Under the pieces are notes generated by a model. It made no database searches. It was not told where the DNA came from and saw nothing but the letters and a program-made list of their open reading frames with translations. The position numbers and the translations under genes are program-made. Positions 995 through 7,714 of a stretch of 20,164 nucleotides of DNA are shown here, in pieces; positions within the stretch are counted from its first letter, which is position 1, and every line of letters begins with the position of its first letter. Origin of the DNA: a virus; IMG/VR virus record IMGVR_UViG_3300047480_000387, positions 1 through 20,164 of that record; one strand, given 5' to 3'.

Positions 995-1525
995 TTAACT
1001 CCAATTAGGACGTAAGGTACGCAACTGAGAGGCTCTCTTTGCGTAAATTGTCCCTGGCTCATCAGCACGAAGGTTTGCTTTACCATCGTTGACTAGGTGA
1101 GGAGCAGGAGTTAACTCCACCTCTGGTCGGTTTCTTTCTGATAAAAAGACAGCCACACCGTTGGCGTTACTCAAAATAGATTTCGATTGGCGTGATAAGC
1201 CTCTTGTGGGCTGTAACTCTGCGGGCCAGTAGTACGCACTTGGCTCTACTCGTTCACCTTTGTGAACACCTCGTTGATACGCTTTTTTGTTTACATTGTT
1301 TTTTATTGAGTCTAACAATCTATCGTCACGACGACGTGTTGTTAAAGTTCCTAAGTATCCGTCTGGGTATTCAGCAGACGGAACACGACCAACACCTAAA
1401 CGCATAAAGTCTAGGTTTGAACGAACAGATGGACCACCATATCCGCTTTGGTTGTTGTATCCGCTTAATCCACCAGCACCCATTGCTTGCCAGTTTTGGC
1501 TTGGGTTCATATTTGTTGCTGGCAT
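995..1525 (-). CDS. Hypothetical protein with Gly/Asn/Ser-rich N-terminus (176 aa)
   Basis: No family is recognised. Residues 1-36 are low-complexity (N, Q, G, S, Y), typical of a disordered tail. The middle (about 60-95) is strongly basic and charged (TTRRRDDRLLDSIKNNVNKK), and the rest looks mixed alpha/beta without cysteines. The start overlaps the upstream stop as TAATG, with GGAG seven bases ahead of the ATG. It belongs to the run of four complete unknown genes that starts at the divergent gap at 2176-2227 and is probably transcribed as one message from there. Confidence 0.8.
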   Translation of the reverse strand: MPATNMNPSQNWQAMGAGGLSGYNNQSGYGGPSVRSNLDFMRLGVGRVPSAEYPDGYLGTLTTRRRDDRLLDSIKNNVNKKAYQRGVHKGERVEPSAYYWPAELQPTRGLSRQSKSILSNANGVAVFLSERNRPEVELTPAPHLVNDGKANLRADEPGTIYAKRASQLRTLRPNWS

Positions 1526-2175
1526 TACTCTTCTCCACGCATACGCTTAACACGATTTTCATTAATTTTTCTTAAAATGTCCCCGTAAGTAACTTTTTCT
1601 TTCTTTCCAGTATCACGATTTACTGTGTAACCAGCCTTTTTATCCCAATCCTTATTACGGTATTGGTTACGGGTAAAACTTCCTTGTTCATTTGGCATAT
1701 CCAATGCACCAGGACGATAACGAGGGTCAACATCGTTTTTACCAAGGTCAGCAGTATGCAGTAAAACGTCTCCGCCATAACCTCCAACAAAGTGACCTCT
1801 GCGAGATACACGTGTTCCACCTAATGCGTAAGAGGCTTTTTGTTTTTCTTCAATACCCATTTTTTGGGCTTCACGAGGAGTCTTAAGTTTTACTGAAATA
1901 TCTTGGTCATATGTACCAGGTGTTTCTGGATTTTTCCATGCACCATGAACAGCGTCTGCAACTCCCTTAACTTTGGCAGCATGCTTTTCTCTGTATTCTT
2001 TAATTTGGCTTTCAGTTGCTGGAAGTGGAGTGGATTGTTCTGCTCCAGAAAAAGCAGTCATAAACCCATGGCCTTTAACAGGCAAACGGTCATGGAAACC
2101 TATTGAGGCTCCACCTTCTTCGGGCTTATTTAGGTGCTCTGCAAATTGAGCATCGCTTAAAGGTCTTTCACTCAT
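1525..2175 (-). CDS. Hypothetical charged protein (216 aa), first gene of the left minus-strand group
   Basis: This protein is highly charged and hydrophilic with no hydrophobic segment. A possible short helix at about 58-75 (QIKEYREKHAAKVKGVAD) precedes a central glycine-rich part (GHFVGGYGGD, near 125-135) and a lysine/arginine-rich C-terminus (GDILRKINENRVKRMRGEE). No cysteine or known catalytic motif is visible. The ATG at 2175 has only a weak upstream purine run (atagg), so translation may depend on the leader. It is the first gene left of the divergent gap that also starts the plus-strand gene at 2228, so a leftward promoter should lie in or beyond that gap. Function unknown. Confidence 0.8.
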   Translation of the reverse strand: MSERPLSDAQFAEHLNKPEEGGASIGFHDRLPVKGHGFMTAFSGAEQSTPLPATESQIKEYREKHAAKVKGVADAVHGAWKNPETPGTYDQDISVKLKTPREAQKMGIEEKQKASYALGGTRVSRRGHFVGGYGGDVLLHTADLGKNDVDPRYRPGALDMPNEQGSFTRNQYRNKDWDKKAGYTVNRDTGKKEKVTYGDILRKINENRVKRMRGEE

Positions 2176-2227
2176 ACAACCTATGGTCTAAGGTAAAGTA
2201 TGATTTGTCAGTATAAAGGAGATAGAA
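2176..2227. promoter_or_regulatory. Divergent intergenic gap, probable promoter region
   Basis: These 52 bases separate a leftward gene (start 2175) from a rightward gene (start 2228), so at least one promoter must lie in or close to them. On the plus strand there is a TATGAT at 2199-2204 that could be a -10 box. On the minus strand TATACT (2212-2217) and CTGACA (2206-2211) are promoter-like, but neither has a convincing partner at the usual 16-18 base spacing. The plus-strand gene has a strong ribosome binding site (aaaggagatagaaATG) inside the gap. The regulatory role follows from gene orientation rather than from a clean consensus. Confidence 0.45.
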
Positions 2228-2434
2228 ATGGCATACGAAAACGTATACAAACGTCCTTTAAAGCATTATGTGGCTATTGCTGTAGGTAATGACGAAAGAT
2301 ACCAAGCAGTATGCAACCCAATTAAATGTGGTTGGAAAGGCTCAGTAACTCATGACCGTTCTATGGCTGAGTTTGAACGGGAGATTCATTACATTGAAAT
2401 TCTTGACCTTGATACAAGGCCGTTCCCTCAATAA
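2228..2434 (+). CDS. Small cysteine-containing hypothetical protein (68 aa), the only plus-strand gene
   Basis: An ideal ribosome binding site (AAAGGAG seven bases before the ATG) and a protein-like sequence support this gene. It has a beta-rich start (HYVAIAVGNDERYQAVC), a possible half zinc site C29-x4-C34 followed by GWKGSV, and an acidic C-terminal helix with H54. It resembles small single-zinc proteins but has only two cysteines, so metal binding is uncertain. It is read against all other genes in the window, and its last 74 bases overlap the 3' end of the phosphoesterase gene on the other strand. The direction suggests separate control from the large minus-strand messages. Confidence 0.72.
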   Translation: MAYENVYKRPLKHYVAIAVGNDERYQAVCNPIKCGWKGSVTHDRSMAEFEREIHYIEILDLDTRPFPQ

Positions 2435-3572
2435 TATTGACGGCTTCAATAGCAAATCTTCCTGACTCTTCGTTATACCAAACGATTCCAACACCTTGTT
2501 GCCAGTTCTCATAATGAACACCTGGACGACCGTCTGAACCTACACCTGAGTTAACAGAAGGAACAGCACCGTCTACTCTGCACAAACATCCTGGAGTAAA
2601 CGCAACACTTCTAATTGGACCCTCTGCATCAAAGGTAGTGCGATACTGCATTTCGATTCGGTGAATGTGACCAAAGATTGTAGATAAATGAGGAGTGTCA
2701 TTGGTGTAAGCAACAGCAGTGTTTCCGTTACTTCTAACCTTGTTACCGTGCATTGCACGAAGGTACTTACCTAACCAAACCATGGACTCTTGAGATGGGT
2801 ACTTGTCAAAAAACTCAATGTCTAGTTCTTTTAGACACAATAGGTTTTGAACACTAAGTACAGGGTCACCGTCTATGTCATTAGCCTTCTTTAGACCATA
2901 AGATGCTGCTGCATTTCTCGTGGCATAAAGGTTAAGACGGTTATCGTGATTACCTTCTAGTAACACGATACGAGCATCAGGAGCAATTGCTCTTTGTTTT
3001 GCCAAAAACTCGTGACCATAATTAATGGCTGCTTGAGTGGTATTAGCAAAGGCTGCTTCTTGTATGTACTTGGAGTGCTCTTGCAAATCTAAGAAATCAC
3101 CTAGATTAATTACTACATCAATCCCGTACTTCTCTTGAACGTACGCCATAATTTTTAACGCTACGTCAATTGCTTTTTCATCATGAAATGGGTCTAAAGT
3201 TCCATCCTCATAACGACGATACCCAATCTGTGGGTCTGGAAGGATAAACGCACATCTCATATTTGTTTGAGACTTATCGTGTTTGGTTGGAGTCCAACCT
3301 AGATTTACATTTACGGGGTCAGCAGGTCTTACTATTTCCCATTGTGGTCCTTCGGTCCACGAAGGATGGATAACAAACTTAACGCCTTCAAGGTCGTGGA
3401 CGGTGGCATTTCCGTCTTCGTCTTTTGTAACCGTTTGATACGCAGATACGTTGACCTTACTAATGCGACCAATATCTTCTGGGTCAAAACCTTGCTTCTC
3501 CAATACTTCTTTAATTTTATTTCTTTGGGCTATTTCACCCAGTTCGTTCCATTTGTCATCATCTAACGACAT
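2361..3572 (-). CDS. Calcineurin-like metallophosphoesterase (403 aa)
   Basis: The signature blocks of the binuclear-metal phosphoesterase superfamily appear in order (numbering from the ATG at 3572): PDPQIG at 112-117, NLGDFLD at 156-162, LEGNHD at 205-210, MHGN with H275, and GHIH at 301-304. The usual D-x-H of block 1 reads D113-P-Q115, a substitution I believe occurs in other phage members. About 100 residues precede the catalytic domain and are unrecognised. Substrates could be DNA ends, nucleotides or RNA; the sequence does not say. The ATG at 3572 is preferred over the one at 3578 because AAGG then sits nine rather than three bases upstream. It overlaps the preceding HTH-like gene, and its 3' end overlaps the plus-strand gene. 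Confidence 0.9.
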   Translation of the reverse strand: MSLDDDKWNELGEIAQRNKIKEVLEKQGFDPEDIGRISKVNVSAYQTVTKDEDGNATVHDLEGVKFVIHPSWTEGPQWEIVRPADPVNVNLGWTPTKHDKSQTNMRCAFILPDPQIGYRRYEDGTLDPFHDEKAIDVALKIMAYVQEKYGIDVVINLGDFLDLQEHSKYIQEAAFANTTQAAINYGHEFLAKQRAIAPDARIVLLEGNHDNRLNLYATRNAAASYGLKKANDIDGDPVLSVQNLLCLKELDIEFFDKYPSQESMVWLGKYLRAMHGNKVRSNGNTAVAYTNDTPHLSTIFGHIHRIEMQYRTTFDAEGPIRSVAFTPGCLCRVDGAVPSVNSGVGSDGRPGVHYENWQQGVGIVWYNEESGRFAIEAVNIIEGTALYQGQEFQCNESPVQTQP

Positions 3573-3832
3573 GCACATGCACCTTGTCTGTGAGTCCGAA
3601 TTGTGTCTTTGCTCATCGGAGTATTTAGAACTCGTTGGAGTTCTCTAAATAAATCAGCATGACTTAAATCTGATTCTAATAGGATAGTGATTACTGCTGC
3701 TTTATCAGGATGCAGACTTGAGTGCCATTTGGCAAACTTACATAACTTACTGGTTTGAGGTCTTTCCTTTAAACGCTGAAGAAGTTCTTGGAAATCTTCT
3801 ATAGAACGTTCTTGAAGGTCGTGCTCTGCCAT
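3563..3832 (-). CDS. Small HTH-like DNA-binding protein (89 aa), putative
   Basis: The protein is predicted almost entirely helical. The second half (about residues 46-82, ITILLESDLSHADLFREL then MSKDTIRTHRQG) reads like a helix-turn-helix in which SKDTIRTHR would be the recognition helix. It ends in a cysteine pair (CAC). This fits small phage HTH proteins, including some annotated as regulators, but the family is not certain. The ATG has AAAGGG eight bases upstream. It overlaps the phosphoesterase gene by ten bases, so the pair is co-translated. The 81-base gap just upstream holds a hairpin and direct repeats that could be its operator. Confidence 0.65.
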   Translation of the reverse strand: MAEHDLQERSIEDFQELLQRLKERPQTSKLCKFAKWHSSLHPDKAAVITILLESDLSHADLFRELQRVLNTPMSKDTIRTHRQGACACR

Positions 3833-4147: not shown

Positions 4148-4561
4148 TTATCGCAATGAGTCGGAAGCAGCCTTGTCCATTCCTTGACGAGCACCCATTG
4201 TGCTAGGAATGATACGTGCATTTGCCATTGTTGCACCTGCTGCTGGGTCAACTGTTGGCATCTTTGCAGAAATCTTGCAACAAGCACCCATACGTTCAGA
4301 TGAACCTGCGTCAACCTTTACAGGAGTACGACGTGGCTTTGCACCCATAACTGTTGGGTCACCTGCTTGTGTATTTTTCTTTGGCATCAATTTGCCTTTT
4401 ACTGCACCAACAGCAAGACGTGCACTTCCACGATTAATCATATCGCTTAGTGAATCTGGCATATCTACTGATGTGTTCTTTGCACCTGCACCATCTAGGT
4501 GACTTGATGCTGCTCCTGCACGACGACGCATAGCGTGTCCCATCTTTCTGTAATCTGACAT
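4148..4561 (-). CDS. Basic Ala/Gly-rich hypothetical protein (137 aa)
   Basis: This protein is rich in Ala, Gly, Met, Lys and Arg (RKMGHAMRRRAGAASSH at the start), with a strongly basic central part (KGKLMPKKNTQ, AKPRRTPVKV) and a vicinal cysteine pair (GACCKIS, near 93-98). No enzyme motif is seen. The composition fits a nucleic-acid-associated or disordered scaffold-like protein. The start is well supported by AAGGAG close to the ATG (aaggagttccaATG). It follows the SpoVS-like gene after a 56-base gap and precedes a second low-complexity gene by three bases. Function unknown. Confidence 0.72.
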   Translation of the reverse strand: MSDYRKMGHAMRRRAGAASSHLDGAGAKNTSVDMPDSLSDMINRGSARLAVGAVKGKLMPKKNTQAGDPTVMGAKPRRTPVKVDAGSSERMGACCKISAKMPTVDPAAGATMANARIIPSTMGARQGMDKAASDSLR

Positions 4562-6551: not shown

Positions 6552-7391
6552 TTATTCTCCAAACTGTAGGCAGGACTTGCATCCTACTTCTGTAATGTTA
6601 CAAGCAATAGGGGTGTTTGTAGCAACCGCTTCTACGACTTGTTGGGCTTTTTTAAATATAGGCTCAACTATTTCATAGTCTGCTTTTACTGAAAACTCTC
6701 TGTAATCTTGGTCAGCCTTTAGTTCATAAAGAAACACGATTTCTTCAACTGGATTACCCATTCGCTTTGTTAGTTCTAGGTAAACCTGACCTTGTAGCAA
6801 GTGAGTTCTAAAAGGACGACGAATACTTCGCCATGCTTTTGTCATATCTCCATCGGCTTTTGCAAGCAGTTCAGGTGCTTCAAAACGAAGGGTTCCTGAC
6901 CCAATTGATTTAATTTCAATCAAACAGTCGTTTCCAATTCCTTTTACCCAACCGTCAGAATGTCCTGCAATTTTTAACTCAGGGTCAACTAACGTCACTT
7001 CGGCATATCGCAAGAAGTGACCATACGCACTGCAAGATTTACACATTTTTGGAGAAGTATCGTAGAACTGTGCTCCACACACTAAACAATTCCAAGCACC
7101 GTAAAGCACACCCATTTCTCTAAACCAGTTTTGCCATTTGGAATGAATGAAATGGCCTTCATCAAAGATTGATTGAAGTCTGAGATTTGGTTTGTCTTTC
7201 TTTACTGTAACTCCCGTTAAAGCAAAGTAAGCGGCTCTTAGACACCAATCAGCCTTAACCATTTCTGATGGGTGCAGCACGTCAGTACGACGGTCCTCAG
7301 CAGGTTTAGCCAATAAATGTCTTTCAACATCTCCTACCAAGCGAGGGTCGCTCTTCTTTGCATCTAAGAACTTCTTCAAATCACCAGCCAT
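6552..7391 (-). CDS. Cas4/RecB-like PD-(D/E)XK exonuclease with inserted zinc knuckle (279 aa)
   Basis: The nuclease core is clear: D146 in GHSDGWV, E159-x-K161 in LIEIKS, and the RecB-family Q200-x3-Y204. H79-like context (FDEGHFIH, 76-83) also matches the family. One cysteine before the core (C50, ADWCLRAAYF) and three at the C-terminus (C264, C271, C274) reproduce the split layout that holds a 4Fe-4S cluster in Cas4 and AddB. Unusually, a four-cysteine module (C102, C105, C117, C120) sits between, probably a zinc knuckle. Phage Cas4-like enzymes act as DNA end-resecting exonucleases in recombination. The gene starts by TAATG overlap with WhiB, with GAGG upstream. Confidence 0.85.
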   Translation of the reverse strand: MAGDLKKFLDAKKSDPRLVGDVERHLLAKPAEDRRTDVLHPSEMVKADWCLRAAYFALTGVTVKKDKPNLRLQSIFDEGHFIHSKWQNWFREMGVLYGAWNCLVCGAQFYDTSPKMCKSCSAYGHFLRYAEVTLVDPELKIAGHSDGWVKGIGNDCLIEIKSIGSGTLRFEAPELLAKADGDMTKAWRSIRRPFRTHLLQGQVYLELTKRMGNPVEEIVFLYELKADQDYREFSVKADYEIVEPIFKKAQQVVEAVATNTPIACNITEVGCKSCLQFGE

Positions 7392-7714
7392 TACTCAACC
7401 TCGTCTAATCCCATTACGTATTCTTCTAGTGTCATTCGTTTTTTGTAATTCTTTTTCCATTTACGGAACAAAGCGTTACGTTCTCTGTGCGACATTCCTC
7501 CCCAAATTCCATGGGGCTCATCTCGCTCTAGTGCATCCCAAAGGCATTGTAGTCTGACGGGACACGGGTTCTTTCCGTTTTCGCCAAAACAGTATGACTT
7601 GGCTTCAGCAGCGATTGTTTTGTACAGTTCTTTATCACGTGGAGGATAGAAGGTGTCAGTGTCAACTCCTTTGCACCGAGCCTTGTACCTCCAGGCGTGT
7701 TGTGGTTCATCCAT
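7391..7714 (-). CDS. whiB-like: WhiB-family iron-sulfur transcriptional regulator (107 aa)
   Basis: Four cysteines (C14, C42, C51, C57) and the diagnostic turn GIWGGMSHRERN (69-80) followed by a basic C-terminus (RKWKKNYKKR) identify a WhiB protein. These carry a redox- or NO-sensitive 4Fe-4S cluster and bind sigma factor or DNA. The second and third cysteines are eight residues apart (C42-FGENGKNP-C51) instead of the usual two. Phage WhiB proteins such as that of mycobacteriophage TM4 interfere with host WhiB function and cell division; a similar host-directed or phage-timing role is possible. The ATG directly follows the upstream stop, with AAGGA about seven bases ahead. This gene is the main evidence for an actinobacterial host. 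Confidence 0.93.
   Translation of the reverse strand: MDEPQHAWRYKARCKGVDTDTFYPPRDKELYKTIAAEAKSYCFGENGKNPCPVRLQCLWDALERDEPHGIWGGMSHRERNALFRKWKKNYKKRMTLEEYVMGLDEVE

What the first reader, a model, noticed from the sequence alone, without database searches (positions are those of the whole stretch)
2228..2434. Lone plus-strand gene overlapping the 3' end of the phosphoesterase gene by 74 bases
All other genes are on the minus strand. This one has an excellent ribosome binding site and a protein-like sequence, begins in a divergent gap and ends inside the opposing coding region (2361-2434). Convergent overlap of two coding regions is rare in phages and would make the two messages complementary at their 3' ends, allowing antisense or collision control.
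Basis: partly seen in the sequence, partly recalled or inferred. Interest (0 to 1): 0.55.

Follow-up and report, generated by a model that had tools for sequence, protein, structure and literature searches.

The report
Antisense zinc-finger gene inside phage operon
In a family of phages that probably infect actinobacteria, one tiny gene for a zinc-finger-like protein lies backwards inside a run of DNA-replication genes and shares its last stretch of DNA with the end of the facing gene; comparison with relatives shows that both genes are real.

Summary
ORF68 (2228-2434, +) is the only plus-strand gene among 34 called in the window and overlaps the 3' end of the metallophosphoesterase gene (PE, 2361-3578, -) by exactly 74 nt. 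It is a real gene: 29 other viral contigs carry a homologue, and in all 29 it overlaps PE tail-to-tail, by 34-89 nt. Inside the overlap, selection divides neatly. PE's last 11 codons change amino acids freely but hardly ever synonymously, because they face ORF68's conserved helix; ORF68's last 10 codons are dictated by PE's conserved end. The protein looks like a small C2H2-type zinc finger. In four relatives a different mini-protein (CxxC, then two His) fills the same antisense slot and also overlaps PE. Seven of ten larger relatives examined carry a tyrosine integrase, always on the antisense gene's strand, while the facing arm encodes replication functions. Best reading: a noncontiguous-operon-like layout, with the overlap itself a by-product of packing. 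Regulation by antisense RNA or polymerase collision is plausible but untested; overlap length varies, and no conserved terminator or RNA structure was found. The kind is known; this is a clear new member.

The parts
2228..2434 (+). ORF68: gene of a 68-aa C2H2-like zinc-finger protein, antisense inside the minus-strand run of replication genes
2361..3578 (-). Metallophosphoesterase (PE), 405 aa, the convergent partner
   Evidence: phrog_20266, E 4.1e-86; PF00149, E 1e-6
2361..2434 (.). 74-nt convergent coding overlap; ORF codon positions 1/2/3 face PE codon positions 1/3/2
2364..2396 (-). PE residues 395-405: free tail (pN/pS 1.52, pS 0.12) facing the conserved ORF68 helix
2397..2434 (+). ORF68 tail (about the last 10-12 codons): amino acids free (last 10: pN 0.237, pS 0.056), facing conserved PE residues 382-394
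2215..2221 (+). Ribosome-binding site AAAGGAG, six bases before the ATG; TAAA.G conserved in 21 aligned leaders
2194..2199 (+). Candidate -10 hexamer TAAAGT (TAnnnT in 20 of 21 leaders, four bases before TTTGTC); promoter inferred
2204..2209 (+). TTTGTC block, present in 21 of 21 ORF68 leaders, absent before the alternative ORF of L040 and L043
1525..2175 (-). 216-aa gene (o216) of unknown function, divergent from ORF68 (52-nt gap); next minus-strand gene after PE

Best explanation
ORF68 is a genuine gene for a small C2H2-type zinc-finger protein, nested backwards between two genes of the replication arm of a probably temperate actinophage family. Shown: it is coding, conserved, and overlaps PE in all 29 relatives. 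Shown: the overlap is a handover, in which each protein's essential end lies opposite the other's free tail. Shown: the slot can be filled by a different CxxC/two-His mini-protein. Inferred: ORF68 has its own short promoter in the 52-nt divergent gap. Inferred: the operon is transcribed through ORF68, giving a noncontiguous-operon arrangement in which ORF68 is made when the replication operon is silent or weak and is damped by read-through when it is active, by polymerase collision or duplex RNA. Inferred: the protein binds zinc, and through its helix a nucleic acid or a protein partner.
For: Coding: hexamer score; pN/pS 0.37 outside the overlap. Dual coding: PE synonymous variation in the overlap is 0.44 of expected, against a minimum of 0.82 in 359 outside windows; for residues 395-405 it is 0.09, 0.12 and 0.00 with 15, 8 and 5 sequences. 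Replicate with another gene: between L040 and L043 the alternative ORF has 6 synonymous and 0 nonsynonymous changes in the overlap, the PE tail 0 and 6. Linkage: of 80 loci found through the neighbour o176, 17 hold PE; 16 of these hold one of the two antisense families (13 ORF68, 3 the other); 0 of 63 without PE hold either. Promoter: TAnnnT plus TTTGTC leader. Zinc finger: H13, C29, C34, H54 invariant in 17 of 17; strand-strand-helix model, pLDDT 77. Strand: 7 of 10 larger records carry a tyrosine integrase, in all 7 on the strand of the antisense gene (ORF68 in 6, the alternative ORF in G005).
Against: No expression data. The simple sigma-70 scan calls no promoter before ORF68, and no -35 is conserved. 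Overlap length varies from 34 to 89 nt, so the overlap itself is not a tuned element. No conserved hairpin beyond the ORF68 stop. No confident match in Pfam, PHROGs or PDB. The L112/L113 pair does not repeat the handover pattern clearly. o216 could have a promoter of its own, which would weaken the operon argument. The window itself, a 20-kb fragment, has no integrase match; temperate life is inferred from relatives.
Confidence: 0.5

Rival explanations
1. Plain genome compaction: ORF68 is a real zinc-finger gene with its own promoter, and the overlap with PE has no regulatory role; the two genes simply read into each other's free tails.
For: Overlap length differs between clades; each protein's conserved part avoids the other's; no conserved RNA structure; antisense overlaps are known in phages (PMC7017920, passages).
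Against: None of the 29 relatives has lost the overlap, and the alternative ORF keeps it too; the gene is antisense inside a run of genes, so some transcriptional interference is hard to avoid.
Confidence: 0.38
2. ORF68 is a partner or inhibitor of PE, as the antisense-encoded Ith protein is of Tha in phage 80alpha: it tracks PE because it acts on PE or on PE's pathway.
For: Neither antisense family in 63 loci without PE, one of them in 16 of 17 with PE; known precedent of a small antisense gene whose product inhibits a product of the operon it interrupts (PMC11087260, passages).
Against: 11 more distant PE loci (39-45% identity) have no ORF68, and L111 has neither family; co-occurrence could reflect acquisition as one DNA block; no interaction data.
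Confidence: 0.1
3. ORF68 is a chance open frame or an antisense shadow of PE.
For: Short; no database family.
Against: Two thirds of it (133 of 207 nt) lies outside PE and is conserved with pN/pS 0.37; 29 homologues; PE loses synonymous freedom exactly where it faces ORF68.
Confidence: 0.01

Closest known systems
Noncontiguous operon (Saenz-Lahoya et al. 2019; seen here only through passages of the review PMC7154746)
   Same: A gene nested antisense between genes of an operon, transcribed on its own.
   Different: There co-transcription and mutual repression were measured; here only gene order, a candidate promoter and selection on both frames are known. The coding overlap with the upstream gene is an added feature here.
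ith/tha of Staphylococcus phage 80alpha (PMC11087260, passages)
   Same: A small antisense gene in a phage operon, a conserved layout with alternative versions of the small gene (ith-1, ith-2).
   Different: There the operon is the lysogeny (cI) operon and the antisense gene rises in the lytic cycle; here the arm is replicative and the antisense gene shares the integrase strand. No sign that PE is a defence protein.
SpdB (PF05122), small mobile-element proteins
   Same: 5 of 17 members match weakly, best E 0.005; that SpdB has a similar cysteine knuckle is recalled, not from a call.
   Different: ORF68 scores 12.5 bits against a cut-off of 25; bits of the other members were not shown.
Lar-type restriction alleviation proteins
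   Same: 6 of the 50 listed viral structure matches (893 in all) bear this name; small phage proteins.
   Different: All six have E above 0.1; no sequence match.

Membership tests
Noncontiguous operon | Gene of opposite direction nested between genes of one operon | tested here: met
   Gene order only: 1 plus gene among 34 called, minus-strand genes on both sides; that these form one operon is inferred
Noncontiguous operon | Flanking genes co-transcribed through the nested gene | not testable with these tools
   no transcript data
Noncontiguous operon | Nested gene has its own promoter | tested here: inconclusive
   TAnnnT in 20 of 21 and TTTGTC in 21 of 21 leaders, but no -35 and no hit in the simple scan
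Noncontiguous operon | Mutual repression by collision or RNase III | not testable with these tools
   needs RNA-seq and mutants
C2H2 zinc finger | Two Cys and two His conserved | tested here: met
   H13, C29, C34, H54 invariant in 17 of 17 rows; that H13 is the fourth ligand is inferred, zinc was not tested
C2H2 zinc finger | Beta-beta-alpha fold with ligands at hairpin and helix | tested here: inconclusive
   model of pLDDT 77 with strands 15-19, 25-29 and helix 44-63; no PDB match at E below 0.001
SpdB (PF05122) | Score above Pfam's curated cut-off | tested here: not met
   ORF68: 12.5 bits against 25
Convergent (tail-to-tail) overlapping gene pair | Both frames under selection in the shared stretch | tested here: met

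The most novel reading that the evidence does not exclude
A replaceable antisense cassette: phages of this family keep a backward slot at the end of PE, fill it with one of at least two zinc-finger mini-proteins, and use transcription across it to make the cassette and the replication operon mutually exclusive, so that the mini-protein is a lysogeny-side or early regulator (possibly of PE itself).
Probability: 0.15. Interest if true: 0.7.

Novelty: new member of a known kind. Interest (0 to 1): 0.42.

Why it matters
It is an unusually clean natural example of how two opposite-strand genes share DNA: the place where each protein stops mattering can be read off codon by codon, and the pattern repeats with a different gene in the same slot. 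It also suggests that the antisense-gene-in-operon layout known from staphylococcal phages occurs in uncultured actinophages, where a role in the lytic/lysogenic choice could be tested.

Tried and rejected
Chance ORF or antisense shadow: rejected. A conserved terminator or RNA element after the ORF68 stop: RNAalifold on 12 sequences gives -1.35 kcal/mol and no compensatory pair; Rfam at gathering scores finds nothing in the window. The ORF68 leader motif elsewhere in the window: the long motif occurs once; the short one has a second match with three mismatches, fewer than chance expects. Named phage relatives: none at E below 1 for ORF68 or for the alternative ORF. Cellular genomes: the one scan gave a single 16-residue match in a Prevotella MAG, not followed up and not credible as an orthologue. 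PDB by sequence: 0 matches at E up to 10; by fold: best Foldseek E 0.45, best VIA Z 5.4, too weak to name a fold; a lambda integrase arm-binding domain (1kjk, Z 4.0, 46 residues, 2.4 A) was noted and set aside. The structure model of the alternative ORF has pLDDT 62 and all-helical content, against the zinc-finger guess; with two near-identical sequences it was not used either way. Homology between ORF68 and the alternative ORF: profile comparison gives probability 7.8%, E 0.0044 for one comparison, so not claimed. Serine recombinase in the ten larger records: 0 of 10. Literature on 'noncontiguous operon' with 'phage' and 'zinc finger': 0 papers; this covers only that wording in the held library. 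On checking, I measured the 29th relative (L131, overlap 86 nt), recounted the leaders, and searched the window for an integrase (0 of 1).

Full report
WHAT IS THERE. My hexamer caller finds 34 genes in the window, 33 minus and one plus, ORF68 (2228-2434). ORF68 has the best coding score of 66 plus-strand ORFs of at least 40 aa (23.2; next 11.4). It starts 52 nt from the start of the divergent 216-aa gene (o216) and ends 74 nt inside the 3' end of the PE gene. The neighbours include DNA polymerase A, RecA, a DnaB-like helicase, a primase, an SNF2-type helicase, a RuvC-like resolvase and a Cas4-like exonuclease, and a WhiB gene (PF02467, E 1.6e-18). WhiB is described as a suggested key indicator of actinophages (PMC10202952, passages seen), and the best named PE relatives are Clavibacter and Microbacterium phages (H1-H15, 38-43% identity). 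The host is therefore probably an actinobacterium (inference).

RELATIVES. A scan of IMG/VR with an alignment of 17 ORF68 proteins gave 29 loci. All 29 overlap PE: by 74 nt in 8, 86 nt in 3, 89 nt in 8 and 34 nt in 10. These loci were found through ORF68, so they cannot show its absence. A scan with PE, which does not select for ORF68, gave 33 loci: 18 with ORF68, 2 (L040, L043) with a different antisense ORF, 11 more distant ones (L046-L056, 39-45% identity) without ORF68, and 2 (L044, L057) cut off. Contigs recur between the scans, and some loci are short.

THE OVERLAP IS A HANDOVER. With 15 of the sequences, PE synonymous variation in residues 382-405 is 0.44 of expected, against a minimum of 0.82 and a median of 1.04 in 359 windows of equal length outside. 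The loss is concentrated in residues 395-405 (0.09; 0.12 with 8 sequences; 0.00 with 5). There PE's pN/pS is 1.52, whereas the facing ORF68 codons have pN 0.123 and pS 0.394. In the other half the roles swap: PE 382-394 has pN/pS 0.16, and the last 10 ORF68 codons have pN 0.237 and pS 0.056. Outside the overlap ORF68 has pN/pS 0.37 and PE 0.17. Pairs of sequences are not independent, so these ratios describe the pattern; the window comparison is the control. The ten 34-nt relatives were not part of this analysis.

A SECOND GENE IN THE SAME SLOT. L040 and L043 (PE 75-76% identical to the window's) have a 61-aa antisense ORF with a 74-nt overlap; its last dozen codons are the same PE-facing DNA as in ORF68, but the rest shows no significant similarity to ORF68. 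L112 and L113 have a 62-aa relative of it with a 71-nt overlap. All four have C-x2-C followed by two histidines three or four residues apart. Between L040 and L043 the ORF shows 13 synonymous and 3 nonsynonymous changes overall, and in the overlap 6 and 0, while the last 24 PE codons show 0 and 6. The L112/L113 pair is less clear: ORF 10 and 8, overlap 1 and 2, PE end 2 and 1. The gene next door also differs (172-182 aa instead of o216). In L111, where neither family is found, PE ends GLEFNA, right after the conserved core, and the next ORF begins a few bases on. A 58-aa antisense GTG ORF does overlap the L111 PE end by 4 nt, but it lies inside that next ORF, has no match to either family, and was not tested further. 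This is one case only; distant PEs without ORF68 have tails of varying length.

LEADER. I aligned 21 of the 30 leaders (window plus 29 relatives; near-identical contigs left out). TTTGTC is present in 21 of 21, a TAnnnT hexamer lies four bases before it in 20 of 21 (L039 has TAGACC), and TAAA.G marks the ribosome-binding site. No -35 is conserved and the simple promoter scan does not call it. I take it as a likely promoter, not a proven one. The leader of L040 and L043 lacks these blocks.

PROTEIN. H13, C29, C34 and H54 are invariant in 17 of 17. The model (pLDDT 77, pTM 0.61) has strands 15-19 and 25-29 and a helix 44-63. The helix, H54 included, is encoded almost wholly inside the overlap (residues 46-63). 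Family searches give only weak leads: SpdB in 5 of 17 members, best E 0.005; 6 of 50 listed viral structure matches named restriction alleviation protein, all above E 0.1.

GENOME CONTEXT. I chose 10 larger records (30-100 kb) behind the loci then in hand: 7 carry a tyrosine integrase and 0 a serine recombinase. In all 7 the integrase lies on the strand of the antisense gene: ORF68 in 6, the alternative ORF in G005 (orientations, coordinates). Gene maps of four records show an integrase-bearing arm converging on the replication arm. In two maps (G002, G006) the antisense gene is the only backward gene called in that arm; in G001 and G005 my caller did not list it, although the tblastn match (G001) or the ORF (G005, as L040) is there. 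The window itself has no integrase match.

MECHANISM. The layout, a gene with a likely promoter of its own nested backwards in a run of genes, is that of a noncontiguous operon (PMC7154746, passages), known in phage 80alpha for ith/tha (PMC11087260, passages). By analogy, read-through of the replication operon would damp ORF68, and ORF68 transcription would damp the operon. None of this is measured. The variable overlap length and the lack of a conserved RNA element speak for the overlap itself being a product of packing, not a regulatory device.

VERDICT. The regulatory interpretation remains open. Kind known, member new, evidence for dual coding unusually clear.

Noticed in passing
window 7391-7714 (-): WhiB-like transcription factor gene (PF02467, E 1.6e-18), pointing to an actinobacterial host.
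   Followed up: partly
window 1525-2175 (-) and L040 4858-5376 (+): Two genes without detectable similarity (216 aa and 172 aa) alternate at the same place before o176: of 80 loci, 38 hold the first, 21 the second and 21 neither.
   Followed up: partly
window 4200-4502 (+): 100-aa plus-strand ORF nested antisense in the gene at 4148-4561 with a mildly positive coding score (11.4); probably a shadow of that gene.
   Followed up: no
L082 and L083, PE gene: PE matches in two pieces in each, as if the gene were broken or misassembled in these two contigs.
   Followed up: no
L093 7199-8713 (-), L092 6781-8385 (-): A larger relative (G006) encodes a queuine tRNA-ribosyltransferase-like and a tryptophan-halogenase-like protein.
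   Followed up: no
window 2361-3578 (-): PE is distantly similar (about 24% identity) to mycobacteriophage proteins, some annotated as recombination directionality factors; whether PE has such a role is open.
   Followed up: no
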